The translations under genes and the position numbers were made by a program. Under the pieces are notes generated by a model. That model was not told where the DNA came from, made no database searches, and was given only the letters and a program-made list of their open reading frames with translations. This document shows, one piece after another, positions 47,012 to 53,794 of a stretch of 59,665 bases of DNA (positions are counted from its first letter, which is position 1; every line of letters begins with the position of its first letter). Location: NCBI GenBank assembly GCA_017503235.1, contig JAFVTL010000072.1, positions 1 through 59,665 on the forward strand, given 5' to 3'. Source of the DNA: Bacteroidaceae bacterium (GTDB lineage Bacteria; Bacteroidota; Bacteroidia; Bacteroidales; Bacteroidaceae).

Positions 47012-48487
47012 TCATTCATATTTCACCGACTTACGGTGGTCCGATACGATTTCCGCTTCCAACTCTTTTGGATTCAAACGAACCGGTTCGCTAACAAAGT
47101 CAGGAACATTGAACGAATAGAGCGATTCACCATAATATTCCGAGGGGTGTTCTTGGGGCAGCAGAAAAGGCTTGCCGATGTTTCCTTCCTCATCGATGCT
47201 TGCCAAATAAATACGGGTATACCGTCCATCTTCCCTGCGGCTACTGAACAAGAACCAATGTGAGTTACTGCTCCAATTATGAAAACTCTCCACATCTTCA
47301 CTGTTCACCTCACTTATCGGACGGCTACACCCCTTATCCAAATCCATCAGCCACAAGTCCGCTTCTTTATGCCAAATGGAGAAAGTTCCATAGTCACAAA
47401 CCGTATACATCAAATACTTGCCATCGTAAGACGGTCGTGGAAACAAGATGCTTTTCCCCGTTTTGTCAGCATTGACCAATGTATCGATACGGTTCCCAAA
47501 GCTTCCATCCTCCACCGAAAAGTCAATGGAACAGAGATGATAGCGTACTTTTTCGTAATCTTCCGGCATTTTCTGCGCCTGAGAAGTACAGAAATAGAGT
47601 TTCTTTCCGTCCGATGAAAAAGCCGGAAATGTTTCAAATGATCCACTTCCCTGTAGCAATTCGGAACTGGTCAGCTGATGAGTCTTCGGATGATAGACCA
47701 ATACGTCCGATGCCGAATCGAACACTTCAATCAGTTTTTCTTTTTTTGCATGAAACGACTGTCCTGTCTTGTTGGTAGAATAAGCGATGTATTCACCCGA
47801 GGGATGCCAATAAGGATATACACAATTGGAAATAGTTTGCTCCGTTTTAGTATCCAGCAGTTCCCGTTCTCCGTCATATTGCATCAGTGTTGCCCCATGC
47901 TTTCCACGGATGTGCAGGCTCATTTCTGTAGGATCGGTTCTGTTGAAAGCATGACAATTCACACACATGCCCGGCACCAATGTGTTGACCAGCAGACCAT
48001 GTTCCTCAAAATTGGAAAGATTACGTTCATAAATGCCCATTTGGCTATACACTTCATATCCCGGTGCTATTCGTCGATACACCACCCCGTAGTCTATAGG
48101 ATGTTCGCTGACATACATGGCAAACGGACGATATTGCTTCCACCCCCCGTCTTCCTTGACCGAAACGGTAAAGACCAGACTGTCCCCTTTATGCTCATCC
48201 AACAATTCATGCCATTTACCCAACGGGAAAGAAATGTCTTTCCCATTTACATGCATACTTCCATTACTGCCTTCCACCTGTACATCCACCCGTTCATAAA
48301 CACCTTCTCCGATTACATCAAAGTTCATCGGAGCAATGCCCGCAGGGATGGTCACTCCTATATAATCCGGATAAATTTCCGGCCATTCATTCACCATCTG
48401 AGGATGAGATACACTTTCACCACACGCTGTCAACCCGCCTATCGGAAGCAAGAAGATAATATACTTTATCCAACCAACCCATTTCAT
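47012..48487 (-). CDS. Beta-propeller lipoprotein with a CxxCH haem motif
   Basis: 491 residues. Lipobox GLTAC (Cys 22). Residues about 40-165 are a beta-sandwich-like region; CVNCH at 175-179 is a c-type haem-binding motif; about 200-470 carry PD40/TolB-like propeller repeats (YPYWHPSGEYIAYST, TFPAFSSDGKKLYF, FPRPSYDGKYLMYT). A single-haem site embedded in a propeller lipoprotein suggests electron transfer or haem-dependent sensing in the envelope. It starts 4 bp after the stop of the upstream membrane/TPR gene. Similar proteins are often annotated only as TolB-like or cytochrome c-biogenesis related. No activity is known to me. Confidence 0.8.
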   Translation of the reverse strand: MKWVGWIKYIIFLLPIGGLTACGESVSHPQMVNEWPEIYPDYIGVTIPAGIAPMNFDVIGEGVYERVDVQVEGSNGSMHVNGKDISFPLGKWHELLDEHKGDSLVFTVSVKEDGGWKQYRPFAMYVSEHPIDYGVVYRRIAPGYEVYSQMGIYERNLSNFEEHGLLVNTLVPGMCVNCHAFNRTDPTEMSLHIRGKHGATLMQYDGERELLDTKTEQTISNCVYPYWHPSGEYIAYSTNKTGQSFHAKKEKLIEVFDSASDVLVYHPKTHQLTSSELLQGSGSFETFPAFSSDGKKLYFCTSQAQKMPEDYEKVRYHLCSIDFSVEDGSFGNRIDTLVNADKTGKSILFPRPSYDGKYLMYTVCDYGTFSIWHKEADLWLMDLDKGCSRPISEVNSEDVESFHNWSSNSHWFLFSSRREDGRYTRIYLASIDEEGNIGKPFLLPQEHPSEYYGESLYSFNVPDFVSEPVRLNPKELEAEIVSDHRKSVKYE

Positions 48488-48491
48488 AGAC

Positions 48492-50264
48492 TCATCCTTT
48501 TCTTACATTTAACAAATACTCCCAATAAGTTCCCCTGTACTTCCTCCGCAACAGTTCGTTTGCATTTTTCTGTTTGGACATATATACCCGGGCAAACTCC
48601 ATCATTCCTTGAGTTATAGAAGGAGATATTTTCCAAGGAATGTCCTTGAAATCCCCATGCTTCTGCAGCCACATATAAGCCAACGCCTCTTGATGGCTAC
48701 GTGGAATATAGACAGCTTCCGCATATTCTCCCGTTTCATAACAAGTCATAAAAGCATCCAAATCCTGCTTCAAGAGAAGATAAGCCAAACGATAGTCTGA
48801 AGCCATGCGGTTCTGCCGGTTGTGTTCAAAGACTTTGCCCAACATTTCCGGATGTTCCTTCCCGTTGAAAAAGAAATCCTCTTCCACTCTCATCCGACGC
48901 AGTTTTCCCCATTCGGGATGGACATTGATTTTTTCTTCATTCCCCAGATAAGTCATTGCATTCTCAGCCCATTCTTCATAAAGATGCGTTTTCTGCAACA
49001 GAAGAAGATACTTCTCCGCCACCTTATAGTCGCCATTGACGATATTCGTTTCCGCCAATCGTTTTATACATCGGGCGCTTTTCTGATAGTTGGGAATTGC
49101 TTCCATCGCTTCAAAATAATAACGCTGGGTCGTATTGACCATACCCATGTGATAATATGCCTCCGCTGTAGGCAAGGGAGAAGTGAAGTCACGGACAAAT
49201 GCCGGCAACAAGCCTCCCGTACCTTGCTGTGAGAATTCAAACATCCTGTCACCCAGATCTCCCTGTTTGGCCAATGCCAAATTTAGACAAGTCATGCTGA
49301 AAGGCGATTCGGGATGCTTCTTTTCCGCTTTCTGAATAATCTTCTGCCATTGTTGCTGGGTTACCAGACAATAATATTGCAAAGCTTCTTCCTTTTCATC
49401 ATTGAGGCCATCCTTGATATAATGCCAACCGCCCACGGTCACAACCCCCATTTGTATAGCTACCCCTATCCATGCCCGCTTATGGATAACCGGAAAATGC
49501 GGAACAGCCCCTGGAAGGAATGCCAACAAAACGGCCGCCCATATTTCCGAAGGCAGTAGCACATCGGAATATCGGTAATACTCCACGCCTGTCATCAAAC
49601 GGGTAAATGAATATTGTAAAGTCAAAGAGCATAGGAAAGGGCACAACACAGAAAGTGTCAAGGCAACCAACGCCAAACCAACCGGTGCATATTTTCTTTC
49701 AGCAGCAGCCCGATGCAATTCATTTGTCACTAACCACACGACAAAGATAAAATGCACCGCTCCAGCCATTCCATACAGCAACGGGAGCATCATGCATACA
49801 TAAATCCATCGAAAGCGTAAAGAGTACGTCAGACCATATCCCCACATCACACCCAAAGTCATCACCAAGGATATAGGAAAAGAGAACAGGGCATTTTCAT
49901 CTCCCATAAAATGCAGAACGGGAAGAAGAGGCAAGAAAGAAAGCGGATAATAGAAGGACGACACTCCTTGTTGCTTCATGCATCTCCACAATAGACGTTG
50001 TATTCCCACACATAAAACCGCAACAAACAAAGCACCAAATTTCGGGTTATAACAGAATTGGGACAGGAAGTCAGACAGATAACATGCCATTCCACCGGGA
50101 ACCATTATCCTCTCCCATGCATAATCTCCATCATACAGAAACATCTGGAACATTTCCTGATAAATAATGTGCGCCGGATATGTTTTATAAACGCCCCCTC
50201 CTATAACAGCTCCTACAGCAACCGATAAAAGTATCTTCCAGTATTTCACTAAGCACTTTTTCAT
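48492..50264 (-). CDS. Polytopic membrane protein with TPR-like C-terminal half (DUF6057-like)
   Basis: 590 residues. The N-terminal about 280 residues hold eight or so membrane segments; the C-terminal half is soluble and helical with TPR-like units (YHMGMVNTTQRYYFEAMEAIPN, CIKRLAETNIVNGDYKVAEKYLLLL). It resembles DUF6057, a family name from memory. It is encoded 4 bp upstream of the CxxCH propeller gene, so the two are likely partners at the membrane. A TTG/TATGTTTG promoter lies above it. Function is unknown; a role in assembly or membrane docking of the haem protein is a guess. Confidence 0.72.
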   Translation of the reverse strand: MKKCLVKYWKILLSVAVGAVIGGGVYKTYPAHIIYQEMFQMFLYDGDYAWERIMVPGGMACYLSDFLSQFCYNPKFGALFVAVLCVGIQRLLWRCMKQQGVSSFYYPLSFLPLLPVLHFMGDENALFSFPISLVMTLGVMWGYGLTYSLRFRWIYVCMMLPLLYGMAGAVHFIFVVWLVTNELHRAAAERKYAPVGLALVALTLSVLCPFLCSLTLQYSFTRLMTGVEYYRYSDVLLPSEIWAAVLLAFLPGAVPHFPVIHKRAWIGVAIQMGVVTVGGWHYIKDGLNDEKEEALQYYCLVTQQQWQKIIQKAEKKHPESPFSMTCLNLALAKQGDLGDRMFEFSQQGTGGLLPAFVRDFTSPLPTAEAYYHMGMVNTTQRYYFEAMEAIPNYQKSARCIKRLAETNIVNGDYKVAEKYLLLLQKTHLYEEWAENAMTYLGNEEKINVHPEWGKLRRMRVEEDFFFNGKEHPEMLGKVFEHNRQNRMASDYRLAYLLLKQDLDAFMTCYETGEYAEAVYIPRSHQEALAYMWLQKHGDFKDIPWKISPSITQGMMEFARVYMSKQKNANELLRRKYRGTYWEYLLNVRKG

Positions 50265-50289: not shown

Positions 50290-50319
50290 CAAACATACAA
50301 AAAAGAGCATGCTCCACAA
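50290..50319 (-). promoter_or_regulatory. Promoter of the membrane/TPR-propeller operon
   Basis: On the minus strand TTG (50319-50317) is followed after 19 bp by TATGTTTG (50297-50290), 26 bp above the ATG at 50264. It overlaps the terminator hairpin of the preceding cassette, so termination and the next promoter share bases. Confidence 0.55.
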
Positions 50320-50327
50320 TGGAGCAT
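50301..50327 (-). terminator. Terminator of the DUF3791-DUF3990-DUF3791 cassette
   Basis: Read leftward, ATGCTCC (50327-50321) and GGAGCAT (50315-50309) form a 7-bp stem with a 5-nt loop; GCTC and a run of six T follow. It starts 9 bp after the last cassette gene. Confidence 0.7.
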
Positions 50328-50335
50328 AATACTCA

Positions 50336-50554
50336 TCAAGCAATTTTCCCATTCTTCAATTCGTGCTGAAGAAAATCGTAAACGTAGATGGGGCTTTGAA
50401 AATAAAGTCCTGTTCGTGCATCTTGAAGTTTCTCGTATGTTTCAGAATTGTAGAGAATATCCAATGCCTCAGGGATGGATATTTCATAATCCTCAATCAG
50501 CATAACGGCTAAATCACGCACCATGCATTCATTCATATATTCAATATCGCTCAT
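50336..50554 (-). CDS. DUF3791 protein (second copy of cassette)
   Basis: 72 residues, acidic, helical, matching DUF3791: a short protein with AVMLIEDYEISIPEALDILY as its core. It starts in an ATGA overlap with the preceding DUF3990 gene, so translation is coupled. It resembles the first cassette protein (51024-51248) only loosely; the two are divergent paralogues. In the toxin-antitoxin model it would be a partner or antitoxin of the ART-like protein. This is inference from arrangement and size. Confidence 0.8.
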   Translation of the reverse strand: MSDIEYMNECMVRDLAVMLIEDYEISIPEALDILYNSETYEKLQDARTGLYFQSPIYVYDFLQHELKNGKIA

Positions 50555-51027
50555 AACTTCTTCAAATGTTTGATTGCTTTCTCTGTACCAAAGAAGTATT
50601 GGAACGTGATACCTTTAATGTATTTCAATCGTTCTAAAAACACTTCAGTATCGATATTCCCTTCCATTAAATTACGGATTTGTACACCAACTTTGTCATC
50701 GGCAATCGGTCCATATACGATGTCATAATCGTGGATGGGAGTATCTGACTTGTTGCTTCTGTTCTTGAATATGAATTCAGCCCATTCCAAACTATATTCC
50801 TTAAATATCTTAACATTAAGAGAACCTTCCGACAATATATGTTCGTCAAATTCAAATGAGCTTATAACTGGGTTACTGTTTGTTTGCAAGGATTTGAAGA
50901 CTGCCATTTCTAAGGCTTGTTCCTTGTCTTCTGACAGATAGAAACCTTTTCCGAAGTCTTTTCCTCGGGCTGATTTATTTAAATCAATCTGGTAGATTTC
51001 GACACCCGAGCCATGATAAAGAATCAT
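50551..51027 (-). CDS. DUF3990 protein, ADP-ribosyltransferase-like
   Basis: 158 residues from MILYHGSG, whose ATG overlaps the TGA of the upstream gene (51024-51027). The N-terminus has YHGS (4-7), like the LxHG(T/S) NAD-binding His of PARP-type ADP-ribosyltransferases, and GKGFYLSEDKEQA (26-38), like the PARP GKGxYFxxxxxxA Tyr motif. DYDIVYGPIADDKV is a further DUF3990 hallmark. A candidate third catalytic residue (Glu in SLEWAEFI) is uncertain. Thus it may modify a host or phage target by ADP-ribosylation. Two DUF3791 genes flank it directly; toxin function is inference. Confidence 0.82.
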   Translation of the reverse strand: MILYHGSGVEIYQIDLNKSARGKDFGKGFYLSEDKEQALEMAVFKSLQTNSNPVISSFEFDEHILSEGSLNVKIFKEYSLEWAEFIFKNRSNKSDTPIHDYDIVYGPIADDKVGVQIRNLMEGNIDTEVFLERLKYIKGITFQYFFGTEKAIKHLKKL

Positions 51028-51248
51028 ATAATCGCTCCTCCGAAGCGTCTGCAATAAGTTGCCATATCTTCCACCATCGAGTCAAAGCTGAGGGTATGAG
51101 CCACATGATATTGGTCACATAGGAAATCTATGGCCTTGTAACGAAGCAAATACTGAAAGGCCTGTTTGGCTGTCAGTTGATATCTCCGTGCAAATTCATT
51201 GATGAATATAATCAGATATTCTGCTTTGTCTTTGATGGAGGCATTCAT
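51024..51248 (-). CDS. DUF3791 protein (first copy of cassette)
   Basis: 74 residues. The core (YLIIFINEFARRYQLTAKQA, then FQYLLRYKAIDFL, YHVAHTLS and the ending YCRRFGG) is typical of DUF3791, a short helical protein. It is translated first in the cassette, from a near-consensus promoter (51270-51301), and its stop overlaps the ATG of the ART-like gene. Being first and small fits an antitoxin expressed ahead of the toxin. Function not demonstrated. Confidence 0.82.
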   Translation of the reverse strand: MNASIKDKAEYLIIFINEFARRYQLTAKQAFQYLLRYKAIDFLCDQYHVAHTLSFDSMVEDMATYCRRFGGAII

Positions 51249-51269
51249 ATATGTAATTATTTGTTAGCA

Positions 51270-51301
51270 CAAAGATAATGTTTCTCCTATAACAATGCAA
51301 A
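51270..51301 (-). promoter_or_regulatory. Near-consensus promoter of the DUF3791-DUF3990 cassette
   Basis: On the minus strand TTTG (51301-51298), 20 bp, then TATCTTTG (51277-51270) is a full match to the Bacteroides TTTG-N19-21-TAnnTTTG promoter. It lies 22 bp above the ATG at 51248. Confidence 0.75.
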
Positions 51302-51333: not shown

Positions 51334-51371
51334 AAAAAGGTGGATATACCTTTTGGCACATCCACCTTTTT
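51334..51371. terminator. Terminator after the metallopeptidase gene
   Basis: AAAAAGGTGGAT (51334-51345) and ATCCACCTTTTT (51360-51371) form a perfect 12-bp stem with a T-run on both strands. It lies 19 bp beyond the stop at 51390 and insulates the cassette promoter from leftward read-through. Confidence 0.85.
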
Positions 51372-51389: not shown

Positions 51390-53657
51390 TCAGAATTTCA
51401 TGTTCAATGTAATGGTAGCCTTGTATTCCTTACCATCCTTGACGTATACAAAGGTGGGCTTCACGGTATAAGTCGTACCCTTTTCCGTTGCTCCGAACAA
51501 GTGTCCATAAGTCAACACGAAACTATCCTTGTTGTATTCCACAAACACCGGAGCGTCTCCATAAGGTGAAGCTGCTCCGTCGGCGGCAATCCAGAATCCC
51601 ACATTCGCTGTATAAGTATAAGAAATGCTTCCATCAGGTTGTGTCAAGCCGAACGCTACCTTGCCTTCCTTCGGGTTGGCTGTTTCACCTACGACGATAG
51701 ACAATGTATTGCTGCTCAATACGGCCGGGTCAAGCACAAACGCCTGAGCAATCTGCTTCAATCCGCCATTGCCTCTCAGGTCAATCTTGCCCAACTCCCA
51801 AGTATTCATGTCCACATCACAATTGACGTCATATTCCAGCTCGATGTCTGTCGGGTCAGCACTTTCATCAATTGCAAAGTTACCCAGCAAGTCTGTACCG
51901 CTGAATGTCACTCGATAAGGCCATTGGTCATCGTCCAGTTCCTTTTCGTTCCATTCACACTGGCTGTATTCACTTGGAGCGCCCAGCACCACGAGGAACA
52001 GACGTTCGGTGTTTTCTGGCACTTCAAATGAAGCAGTGCTTTCGCCCACTGCACCTTCGTTCATGTCACCATAAACACGGGTTCCGTCCTTCTGCATGGC
52101 TACAAAACCATATCTCCAGCCTTCCTTACCCATACGTTGCGGGTTATAAGTGGTCACTGTACCCTTCACGGCTTCGTTTTCCATGTATTGACCGGCATCG
52201 CCATCAGCCAAAGCCGAACCGGCAGCCAAGCCTTCGAAAGTGACAGATACGGTATTTTCACCTTCCGGCAAATTCAACGGAATGACATTGAAACCGGTGG
52301 TAGACGGACAGCTGGCGTATGCCACCTGATAACCCTTATCGGTCTTCAACAACTTGGTACTGAATGCACCCTGTGCACCGTCGGAGTATTCACGCACGCC
52401 GTCGATGTCGAAGGTAGCCATGCGTGCTGCATAGTCATACAGTTCGGCGTAGGTCTTTGTCCAGTCACCGTTGTTGAATACATTATTGTAAGTCTTGATG
52501 GCATCATCGGGGAATACCGATTCACGCCAGATTTCACCATAAGCTTCCACGCCGTGCAGCTGTACCCAGTAGCTCTGCAACCAGTAGCTGGCATAGCGCA
52601 TCCATTCGTGGTGGAAGTGACGGTGATAGTTGGCCTTGAACACATCGAGGTCATAACCGAACTGCTGAGTCGGATAGTCCTGGAACGATTGCCACTGTGC
52701 ACATTGTTCCCAGTAAGCGCAACCGCCTTCACCCTTCGGTCCGAAGCCATAACGGAAACCACTCTTCAAGTCATCCGTACCACCCTGATAGAGTTTGTCG
52801 CAGTACACCTGATACTGGAAGGAGTGACCGATTTCGTGTGCGATGGTAGAACCTACCGGCTGACAAGTACTCGGGTTCACCCACAAGGCACCGATGACGT
52901 TGTCATAACCCGAACCGGTTGCCAACCATTCTGTCTGGTGCAACAAGTAGATTTCCATCTTATAGTCGTCCAGGTAGGACTTGCCCTTGCCCACTTCAGT
53001 CATCTTCAGCACCTCTACGTTGGTGGTATAGAACTGTTCAGCCTTTTCCAGCAAGTCGTCAATATCCACAGCCATCGGCACACCGTCTACCGGTTCCGCC
53101 TTGCTCGGGTCGTCACCGAATCCCGGTTCCCAGAACACCACGAAGTGTTCGCTCTGCTTGCTGCGGTACCACGACCATTGAGCGTCGTTACGGAACATGT
53201 CAATTCTTTCAAATTCCGCCGGCTTGTAATATCTGTCCAAGTCCTTCACTTCCGACGGGTCCATTTCTTCGAGAGTGGTTCCCGCTTGAGTGACACTGAT
53301 TTCTATCTTAGTCTTTCCGCAAGTCACTACGATGGTAGCGCTGCGTGCTTCCTTCGATGCGTTTTCGCTCACCTCGAAGCCCAGCTTTTCACTGCCGCCC
53401 ACACCTTCGGCCTTCACCAGAGTCAACCATGAAGCCGACTCCTTCAGCGTAGCCTTCCATGCAGTACGCGAGTTCACATTGATAGACTGGTAATGATATT
53501 CCGCATCGAACGACCATTCCAGGTCTGCTTCCGCAATGGTGATAAGGCTTCCTGCGCCTCCACCGTCACCGTCGTCGTCACTGTCGCTACAAGCCGCAAA
53601 GCCCATTGGCAGCAACAGGGCGAACATCCAAATCCAAAAATTCTTCATTGTTTTCAT
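51390..53657 (-). CDS. BACON/HExxH metallopeptidase lipoprotein with DUF4859-like C-terminus
   Basis: About 755 residues from MKTMKNFW (or 752 from MKNFW). Lipobox GFAAC (Cys about 23) then SDSDDDGDG. A BACON domain (about 40-126) is followed by a putative zinc peptidase with HEIGH at 274-278 and an EHFVVFWE opening like DUF6055. A beta-sandwich follows at about 425-560, then a C-terminal module (about 590-755; GFWIAADG) homologous to the DUF4859-like repeats of the protein encoded at 54557. It may cleave host or dietary glycoproteins bound at the cell surface. Two separate arguments link it to the next operon: shared domain type and orientation; an 0.9-kb gap separates them. Confidence 0.83.
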   Translation of the reverse strand: MKTMKNFWIWMFALLLPMGFAACSDSDDDGDGGGAGSLITIAEADLEWSFDAEYHYQSINVNSRTAWKATLKESASWLTLVKAEGVGGSEKLGFEVSENASKEARSATIVVTCGKTKIEISVTQAGTTLEEMDPSEVKDLDRYYKPAEFERIDMFRNDAQWSWYRSKQSEHFVVFWEPGFGDDPSKAEPVDGVPMAVDIDDLLEKAEQFYTTNVEVLKMTEVGKGKSYLDDYKMEIYLLHQTEWLATGSGYDNVIGALWVNPSTCQPVGSTIAHEIGHSFQYQVYCDKLYQGGTDDLKSGFRYGFGPKGEGGCAYWEQCAQWQSFQDYPTQQFGYDLDVFKANYHRHFHHEWMRYASYWLQSYWVQLHGVEAYGEIWRESVFPDDAIKTYNNVFNNGDWTKTYAELYDYAARMATFDIDGVREYSDGAQGAFSTKLLKTDKGYQVAYASCPSTTGFNVIPLNLPEGENTVSVTFEGLAAGSALADGDAGQYMENEAVKGTVTTYNPQRMGKEGWRYGFVAMQKDGTRVYGDMNEGAVGESTASFEVPENTERLFLVVLGAPSEYSQCEWNEKELDDDQWPYRVTFSGTDLLGNFAIDESADPTDIELEYDVNCDVDMNTWELGKIDLRGNGGLKQIAQAFVLDPAVLSSNTLSIVVGETANPKEGKVAFGLTQPDGSISYTYTANVGFWIAADGAASPYGDAPVFVEYNKDSFVLTYGHLFGATEKGTTYTVKPTFVYVKDGKEYKATITLNMKF

Positions 53658-53794
53658 ACTATTAGTTTTAAAATCCACCTATTATCATTAGTAATTCAAT
53701 CCGAACATCCAAAGTGGAATGACATTCAAATAACCACTTTCCCCAATCCACAGATACCTTCAGCCTTATCGCACATTGTGGAGTGTAGCAAAAC

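What the first reader, a model, noticed from the sequence alone, without database searches (positions are those of the whole stretch)
50336..51301. DUF3791-DUF3990-DUF3791: a likely ADP-ribosyltransferase toxin-antitoxin cassette
Three tiny genes with double ATGA overlaps, a full-consensus promoter and a private terminator on each side form an autonomous unit between envelope genes. The middle protein has PARP-like YHGS and GKGFYLSEDKEQA motifs. Two divergent DUF3791 proteins flank it, which is unusual for a two-component TA pair: one could be antitoxin and the other a chaperone, second antitoxin or target-specificity factor. Could also be an anti-phage module.
Basis: partly seen in the sequence, partly recalled or inferred. 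Interest (0 to 1): 0.72.

Follow-up and report, generated by a model that had tools for sequence, protein, structure and literature searches.

The report
Three-gene ART toxin with paired antitoxin
A tiny three-gene cassette in a gut bacterium probably makes an enzyme that can poison the cell and two related small proteins that keep it in check; the arrangement recurs in many bacteria and is already listed elsewhere as a possible virus-defence system.

Summary
In detail: three overlapping minus-strand genes (A 74 aa, B 158 aa, C 72 aa; ATGA at both joints), a Bacteroidetes-type promoter and a terminator. A is Pfam DUF3791 and B DUF3990; C matches no Pfam family but is a distant relative of A by profile comparison. 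The trio is not unusual: A-B-C recurs in 79 of 80 named loci (the best 80 of 485), and all 40 full-length DUF3990 genes of an order-level survey have partner genes. PADLOC-DB already lists it as candidate PDC-M13, so this is a new member of a known, uncharacterised kind.

Best reading: a toxin-antitoxin cassette with a predicted ADP-ribosyltransferase toxin (invariant H-Y-Q) and a bipartite antitoxin, A plus C. The evidence is indirect: A-C fusions, A+C pairs without toxin, plasmid contexts, and DUF3990 on Rhs effectors. Ten A proteins carry a HigA-like DNA-binding domain; their promoters hold a GTTTC-N8-GAAAC operator shared with HigBA-type operons (10 of 10 within one mismatch; plain A 3 of 143). 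The window copy has neither. In a Moraxella plasmid the trio sits inside a type I restriction operon.

The parts
51270..51301 (-). promoter of Bacteroidetes type, TTTG-N20-TATCTTTG
   Evidence: only such match in the window, about 1.2 expected; TAnnTTTG within 150 bp upstream of A in 49 of 80 relatives, shuffle mean 7.3
51024..51248 (-). gene A, 74 aa, DUF3791 (PADLOC PDC-M13A): predicted antitoxin subunit; no HTH in this copy
   Evidence: Pfam PF12668 1.6e-21; PDC-M13A 1.8e-25
50551..51027 (-). gene B, 158 aa, DUF3990 (PADLOC PDC-M13B): predicted ADP-ribosyltransferase toxin
   Evidence: Pfam PF13151 4.6e-48; PDC-M13B 6.1e-45; H5, Y30, Q143 invariant in 77 of 77
50336..50554 (-). gene C, 72 aa, distant DUF3791-like (PADLOC PDC-M13C): predicted second antitoxin subunit
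   Evidence: PDC-M13C 4e-22; family C vs family A hhalign E 9e-7, 0 of 100 shuffles as good
51013..51015 (-). codon of B His5, predicted NAD-site histidine (motif LYHGS)
   Evidence: invariant 77 of 77; role inferred
50938..50940 (-). codon of B Tyr30, predicted NAD-site tyrosine (motif DFGKGFYLS)
   Evidence: invariant 77 of 77; role inferred
50599..50601 (-). codon of B Gln143, proposed third catalytic position (Q where PARPs have E)
   Evidence: invariant 77 of 77; the match to the PARP glutamate is by eye, not resolved by hhalign
50308..50328 (-). terminator after C
   Evidence: fold z -4.4
51334..51371 (-). strong hairpin after the upstream neighbour (51390-53678), which would insulate the trio
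   Evidence: fold -25.2 kcal/mol, z -6.9

Best explanation
The trio is a self-contained toxin-antitoxin cassette. B (DUF3990) is predicted to be an NAD-using ADP-ribosyltransferase that halts the cell when free; its target is unknown. A and C are two diverged copies of one small protein family that together form a bipartite antitoxin and hold B inactive. C may be the core partner of B: it is fused to B in one genome, and a C-like protein, at weak support, is the only partner found for five phage-type DUF3990s. A is the exchangeable partner that in some lineages carries a HigA-like DNA-binding domain and probably represses the operon through an operator in its own promoter. Release, by loss of the cassette or by an invader that disturbs A or C, would free B. 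Shown: gene anatomy, co-occurrence, the A-C relationship, fusions, A+C pairs without toxin, operator association, contexts. Inferred: ART activity, toxicity, neutralisation, repression, trigger. The window copy has a plain A without HTH or operator, so its regulation is unknown.
For: Co-occurrence: 79 of 80 named loci are A-B-C in that order and strand (the best 80 of 485 relatives). Order survey (247 genomes): 40 of 40 full-length DUF3990s have partner genes: 35 with A and C (one C cut by a contig end), 3 with a PDC-M10B-type protein, 2 with a PDC-M42B-type protein (tally 128). Overlap of -4 bp in 63 of 72 A-B and 62 of 72 B-C joints, start codons chosen close to the joint. Contexts differ: 147 nearest neighbours fall in 140 clusters.

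Fusions: C-A in L055, L061, pBF9343 (L212), L215; B-C in L036, L037, L039, L053, all from one genome (G242); HTH-A-C without toxin in L071. Retention: of 51 DUF3791 hits in the order survey, 9 have no DUF3990 gene beside them, 4 more have a broken one, 2 are unresolved; 5 of the 9 keep C.

Toxin: DUF3990 is the tip of a Serratia T6SS Rhs effector with a small predicted immunity gene downstream (PMC4524185, one passage) and of an Enterobacter RhsA (PMC10763514, one passage). It is in Pfam's ART clan (PMC7955679, passage). H-Y-Q invariant in 77 of 77. ART-PolyVal model hits a B protein at 1.1e-5, under its cut-off.

Operator GTTTC-N8-GAAAC before TAnnTTTG in HTH-A promoters: in the same wide window, 8 of 10 exact and 2 with one mismatch; plain A 1 exact and 2 with one mismatch of 143 (narrower window: 7 and 2 of 10 against 1 and 1 of 143). 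Of 28 site-plus-promoter matches in 247 order and 61 genus genomes, 15 precede a HigB-like gene with an HTH gene behind it (Pfam Gp49 and HTH_3 in the 2 pairs tested), 2 a piece of such a pair, 6 an HTH-A gene.

Plasmids: 76 records; one gene behind parA (L214; pBUN1); near a zeta toxin (pBF9343).
Against: No direct test of toxicity or neutralisation. The fold of B was not predicted; no PDB relative by sequence; B against bacterial PARPs is marginal (score 21.6 vs shuffle maximum 21.3, probability 4%), motif III not aligned. The window copy has neither HTH nor operator; 143 of 153 distinct A proteins are plain. Five of the 6 HTH-A sites of the genome search are loci, or near-identical copies, that gave the motif. 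In the 80 loci B is broken 7 times, A once, C 3 times: given gene lengths not clearly toxin-biased. PDC-M42B is not convincingly related to A or C: against A probability 3% though 0 of 100 shuffles score as high, against C 23 of 100 do. The C-like reading of phage-type partners falls to probability 34% when L153 is left out. B-C fusions mean C cannot be released separately from B there.
Confidence: 0.7

Rival explanations
1. Anti-phage guard (PDC-M13 as a defence system): A or C senses a phage product or the failure of another defence such as type I restriction, frees B, and infection aborts. This is the same molecular machine with defence as its selected role, so it does not exclude the best explanation.
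For: Listed as a candidate in PADLOC-DB; 3324 occurrences in a set of 6530 rumen genomes and MAGs (PMC13356809, passages); HTH-hsdM-[B-C-A]-hsdS-hsdR in Moraxella pNP7-2 (A, B, C confirmed by profile) and B-C-A-hsdS in p3; CmdTAC shows that a three-component ART system can work this way (PMC11618068, abstract and passages).
Against: Ten nearby window genes scanned with Pfam are Sus-type, DUF6057/PD40, peptidase, epimerase and CotH genes, none a known defence gene; plasmid addiction explains the parA contexts as well; no phage test seen (all hits listed) or 81 (12 of 469 listed).
Confidence: 0.45
2. Toxin-antitoxin-chaperone system of the CmdTAC or SecB-TAC kind, with one small protein a chaperone.
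For: Three genes, ART-like toxin, tight operon.
Against: No SecB-like hit in Pfam, PADLOC, NCBIfam or PHROGs; the two small proteins are related to each other, and fused A-C forms exist.
Confidence: 0.07
3. Interbacterial toxin with immunity genes: a detached Rhs tip with two immunity proteins, as for Bxa with Bsi and BAH.
For: DUF3990 occurs on Rhs effectors; two neutralisers per ART are known for Bxa (PMC11699363, abstract and passages).
Against: B is only the 158-aa domain with no delivery domain, and A lies upstream of B in all 80 named loci; neither small protein is an ADP-ribosyl hydrolase by family search.
Confidence: 0.08
4. Not a toxin: a housekeeping ADP-ribosylation switch with two regulatory subunits.
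For: No toxicity has been measured; dN is far below dS in the few pairs (5 to 7 per gene) where dS could be estimated.
Against: Patchy (36 of 61 genus genomes), differing contexts, plasmids and phage contigs, multiple copies and decayed B copies.
Confidence: 0.1

Closest known systems
PDC-M13 (PADLOC-DB candidate), with PDC-M10 and PDC-M42
   Same: The three window proteins match PDC-M13A, B and C best. PDC-M10 is a two-gene version whose second protein looks like A and C in one chain.
   Different: PADLOC lists models without a mechanism; the relation of A to C, the antitoxin reading and the operator are from this work. PDC-M42B is not shown to be related to A or C.
CmdTAC
   Same: Three genes with an ART-like toxin and two small partners; the complex is opened by phage (PMC11618068, abstract and passages).
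   Different: Its third gene is a SecB-like chaperone; here the third gene is a relative of the other small protein.
HigBA-type systems (Gp49 toxin plus HTH antitoxin)
   Same: The HTH of HTH-A proteins and the operator GTTTC-N8-GAAAC in the promoter are shared.
   Different: The toxin is of another family (Gp49 versus DUF3990), and the window's A lacks the HTH.
Bxa with Bsi and BAH (Bacteroides stercoris prophage)
   Same: An ART neutralised by two proteins encoded beside it in Bacteroides (PMC11699363, abstract and passages).
   Different: Bxa is a polymorphic toxin with its ART at residues 621-869, acting on arginine; one neutraliser is an enzyme.
DUF3990 tips of T6SS Rhs effectors (Serratia Rhs5, Enterobacter bugandensis RhsA)
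   Same: Same domain family (PMC4524185 and PMC10763514, one passage each).
   Different: There the domain is delivered to rivals; its partners were not compared here.
DarTG and HipBST (both recalled, from no call)
   Same: DarTG: ART toxin with antitoxin. HipBST: three-gene system with a DNA-binding subunit.
   Different: No macrodomain and no kinase hit in this trio.

Membership tests
PDC-M13 (PADLOC candidate) | three adjacent genes matching PDC-M13A, PDC-M13B and PDC-M13C | tested here: met
   1.8e-25, 6.1e-45, 4e-22
PDC-M13 (PADLOC candidate) | protects against phage | not testable with these tools
   needs plaque assays
Pfam DUF3791 | profile match over cut-off for gene A | tested here: met
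   76.5 bits, cut-off 25
Pfam DUF3791 | profile match over cut-off for gene C | tested here: not met
   no hit up to E 1; only family-to-family similarity
ADP-ribosyltransferase superfamily, H-Y-[EDQ] type | conserved H and Y motifs and a third E, D or Q | tested here: met
   H5, Y30, Q143 invariant in 77 of 77; that the clade allows Q is recalled, and that Q143 is the third position is by eye
ADP-ribosyltransferase superfamily, H-Y-[EDQ] type | ART fold with the triad round an NAD cleft | not tested
   structure prediction switched off; profile comparison with PARPs marginal
type II toxin-antitoxin system | adjacent, overlapping small genes that move as a unit with patchy occurrence | tested here: met
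type II toxin-antitoxin system | antitoxin binds DNA and represses its own promoter | tested here: inconclusive
   HTH plus operator in 10 of 153 distinct A genes of the family; absent from the window copy
type II toxin-antitoxin system | toxin inhibits growth, antitoxin relieves it by binding | not testable with these tools
   needs expression and pull-down
toxin-antitoxin-chaperone (CmdTAC) | SecB-like chaperone gene | tested here: not met
   no such hit for A, B or C
DarTG | macrodomain antitoxin | tested here: not met
   no macrodomain hit for A or C

The most novel reading that the evidence does not exclude
A toxin-antitoxin class in which one ancestral clamp was duplicated into two subunits, A and C, that jointly close an H-Y-Q ADP-ribosyltransferase. 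C is the fixed core and A the exchangeable sensor or regulator, which can capture a foreign HigA DNA-binding domain together with its operator. The cassette can be plugged into restriction operons, where it would act as their guard and kill the cell when restriction fails. (Odds lowered from 0.40 to 0.35 after a recheck, weakened the C-as-core part.)
Probability: 0.35. Interest if true: 0.68.

Novelty: new member of a known kind. Interest (0 to 1): 0.5.

Why it matters
The trio is common in gut and rumen Bacteroidales (DUF3990 in 36 of 61 genomes of the window's genus; 3324 PDC-M13 occurrences in rumen genomes, PMC13356809, passages) and relatives sit on conjugative plasmids of common gut species. 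I saw no functional study of it, which hold no bioRxiv preprints. If the reading is right, it gives two anonymous DUF families and two PADLOC candidates (M10 and M13, perhaps M42) one common logic, gives each protein a testable role, and offers an operator sequence and natural fusions for bench tests.

Tried and rejected
B against the PDB by sequence: none by phmmer, one chance hit to neurexin at E 0.2 by profile. A and C against the PDB: only chance-level hits. Profile of B against bacterial PARPs: H and Y motifs in register in the global alignment but marginal; not counted as proof. Search for C-A fusions in viral contigs: nothing. Empty-site test: 0 of 10 relatives of the upstream gene carry the trio beside them, and none has the downstream DUF6057 gene there, so the trio lies at a junction of two operons but no clean insertion was shown. 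Toxin decay as proof of toxicity: B broken 7, A 1, C 3 of 80, not clearly above gene length. Idea that phage-type DUF3990s stand alone: doubtful; five (L160, L165, L168, L169, L170) have an overlapping small downstream gene that as a group with L153 resembles family C (E 3e-6), but without L153 only E 4e-4, probability 34% (0 of 100 shuffles), and single members E 0.0006 to 0.08; L171 ends at its contig edge, and L172 and L180 (cut short) were not resolved. Idea that PDC-M42B is A plus C: not supported. Operator as a general feature: rejected for plain A (3 of 143 within one mismatch). Chaperone role for C: no support.

Full report
What is in the window. Three minus-strand genes overlap by ATGA: A (51024-51248, 74 aa), B (50551-51027, 158 aa) and C (50336-50554, 72 aa). 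A Bacteroidetes-type promoter, TTTG-N20-TATCTTTG, lies at 51270-51301. It is the only such match in the window, where about 1.2 are expected by chance, so its position and its recurrence in relatives count, not the match alone. A terminator follows C (50308-50328), and the upstream neighbour ends in a strong hairpin (51334-51371). Pfam names A DUF3791 and B DUF3990; C has no DUF3791 hit. PADLOC-DB matches A, B and C to PDC-M13A, B and C. That PDC means 'phage defence candidate' is stated in a passage of PMC13356809.

The trio is the rule, not an oddity. In 79 of the 80 the order is A-B-C on one strand, in three of them with B split; one (L147) lacks C. In the 72 loci with all three genes intact, with start codons chosen close to the joints, the A-B overlap is -4 in 63 and the B-C overlap -4 in 62. 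TAnnTTTG lies within 150 bp upstream of A in 49 of 80 loci against a shuffle mean of 7.3, and the full promoter in 17 against 0.4. The 147 nearest neighbour genes fall in 140 clusters, so these loci share no fixed context. Pairwise identities of A, B and C correlate (Mantel r 0.70, 0.73, 0.74; 73 complete trios), as for a unit that travels together. In most close pairs dS is saturated; in the 5 to 7 usable estimates per gene dN is far below dS.

An independent order-level survey covered 247 genomes. All 40 full-length DUF3990 genes have partner genes (my tally). Thirty-five have both A and C, in the orders A-B-C, C-A-B or B-C-A or fused; in one of these C is cut by a contig end. Three have a PDC-M10B-type protein: L057 by PADLOC, L055 and L032 by alignment to it at 70% and 36% identity. 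Two have a PDC-M42B-type protein: L069 by PADLOC, L068 by alignment at 45%. PDC-M10B looks like A and C in one chain: its C-terminal half against family C gives E 1.8e-8, its N-terminal half against family A E 5e-4, and 0 of 100 shuffles reach either. PDC-M42B has an HTH_3 domain at its end; its relation to A is weak (probability 3%, although 0 of 100 shuffles score as high) and to C absent (23 of 100 shuffles as good). Five phage-type DUF3990s have an overlapping small downstream gene. As a group with L153 these resemble family C (E 3e-6); without L153 the support drops to E 4e-4, probability 34%, still above 100 shuffles.

A and C are relatives. Family A against family C: E 9e-7, probability 91%; reversed and 100 column-shuffled controls score at most 17.3 against 36.7. 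They occur fused to each other (L055, L061, pBF9343 L212, phage clone L215). C is also fused to B in L036, L037, L039 and L053, all four from one genome, G242. One protein, L071, is HTH-A-C with no toxin found in the 11 kb read. Of 51 DUF3791 hits in the order survey, 36 lie beside a full-length DUF3990, 4 beside a broken one (L047, L048, L049, L070), 9 have none (L249 has at most a scrap), and 2 are unresolved (L247 at a contig end, L253 with a weak hit). Five of the 9 keep C as well (L033, L071, L248, L250, L251). No full-length DUF3990 of that survey stands without a partner. This is the pattern expected if A+C is the neutralising unit.

B as a toxin. In 77 aligned B proteins, including 14 from viral contigs, H5, Y30 and Q143 are invariant. 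LYHGS and DFGKGFYLS resemble PARP motifs I and II. Q143 sits where the PARP catalytic glutamate would be, but that is by eye: hhalign with bacterial PARPs is marginal and does not align motif III. The ART-PolyVal model hits one B protein at E 1.1e-5, 27.5 bits against a cut-off of 31.2. A paper passage lists DUF3990 in Pfam's ART clan (PMC7955679). Two others find DUF3990 at the tip of T6SS Rhs effectors, in Serratia with a small downstream gene predicted as immunity (PMC4524185, PMC10763514; one passage each).

A captured DNA-binding module. Ten of 153 distinct A proteins carry an N-terminal HTH like that of L113 (Pfam HTH_3 confirmed in L113, L071 and L153). Seven of the 10 have GTTTC-N8-GAAAC 6-7 bp upstream of TAnnTTTG, two more have it with one mismatch, and the tenth (L127) has it just before a later start codon. 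With the same wide window for all, the counts are 8 exact and 2 with one mismatch of 10 HTH-A genes, against 1 exact and 2 with one mismatch of 143 plain A genes. I then searched for site plus promoter in 247 order genomes (18 sites; 4 for the backwards control) and 61 genus genomes (10 sites; 0 for the control). Downstream of the 28: 15 have a HigB-like gene with an HTH gene behind it, 1 a fragment of such a toxin gene (L302), 1 a lone HigA-like gene (L290), 6 an HTH-A gene (L294, L299, L303, L304, L305, and L297, truncated and without a scored A domain), 3 other genes (L288, L289, L295), and 2 no gene that the script could read (L286, L298). Five of the 6 HTH-A sites are loci, or near-identical copies, that gave the motif; the HigBA-type sites are new. 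Pfam calls the toxin Gp49 and its partner HTH_3 in the two pairs tested; the HTHs of L113 and L285 are 47% identical over 55 residues. So HTH-A proteins share module and operator with HigBA-type systems, which makes autorepression by A likely in those lineages. The window copy has no HTH, and no site within two mismatches between 50200 and 51500.

Context and mobility. DUF3990 is in 36 of 61 genomes of the genus (taken to be Phocaeicola because one of them carries the P. vulgatus locus L113 at the same coordinates). It is in 76 plasmid records (28 typed conjugative), 7 phage records and 30 viral contigs. On plasmids it stands one gene behind parA (Clostridiaceae L214; pBUN1) and one gene from a zeta-toxin gene (pBF9343). 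In Moraxella osloensis pNP7-2 the order is HTH-hsdM-B-C-A-hsdS-hsdR, with 4-bp overlaps from hsdM through hsdS; A, B and C there match my profiles at 2e-10, 2e-45 and 4e-12. In the window the neighbours are DUF6057 and PD40 genes and a Sus-type group, and none of 10 relatives of the upstream gene has the trio beside it.

How it most likely works. B is held inactive by A and C together; C may be the core partner and A the exchangeable one, regulatory where it carries an HTH. Freed B would use NAD to modify an unknown target and stop growth. Anatomy, association, homology of A and C, and the operator association are shown; enzyme activity, toxicity, neutralisation, repression and trigger are inferred. 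Whether selection is for plasmid upkeep, phage defence or both is open.

Compared with what is known. It belongs to PADLOC's PDC-M13 by all three genes. It is not a CmdTAC-type chaperone system (no SecB-like hit) and not DarTG (no macrodomain hit). The only paper found naming PDC-M13 counts it in rumen genomes (PMC13356809, passages); five papers name DUF3990 or DUF3791 (passages of four read, PMC12165300 seen in the listing only). No bioRxiv preprints are held, so a study there would be missed.

Noticed in passing
L278 1-8450 (Moraxella osloensis pNP7-2) and L238 (p3): B-C-A lies inside a type I restriction operon between hsdM and hsdS with 4-bp overlaps (L278; in L238 hsdS follows); a candidate guard arrangement.
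   Followed up: partly
G242 loci L036, L037, L039, L041, L047, L048, L053, L057: One incomplete genome holds eight DUF3990 matches, four of them with C fused to B and two decayed.
   Followed up: partly
L279-L285, L287, L291-L293, L296, L300, L301, L306: Operator GTTTC-N8-GAAAC plus TAnnTTTG marks HigB-like toxin plus HTH antitoxin operons in Bacteroidales genomes.
   Followed up: partly
L241 (Butyrivibrio proteoclasticus plasmid pCY360): A DUF3990 gene lies one gene away from a protein annotated with a PARP catalytic domain.
   Followed up: no
L239 (Bacteroides uniformis pBUN1): The C-A/B pair behind parA is followed by ORF6N, Fic and RhuM genes, a dense cluster of conflict-type genes.
   Followed up: no
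window 47012-50264: The DUF6057 gene and the PD40-repeat gene form a conserved, often duplicated pair in the genus; function unknown.
   Followed up: partly
L261 2324-3316: DUF3791 at the end of a 330-aa open frame with no other Pfam domain, beside a B remnant and a C gene.
   Followed up: partly
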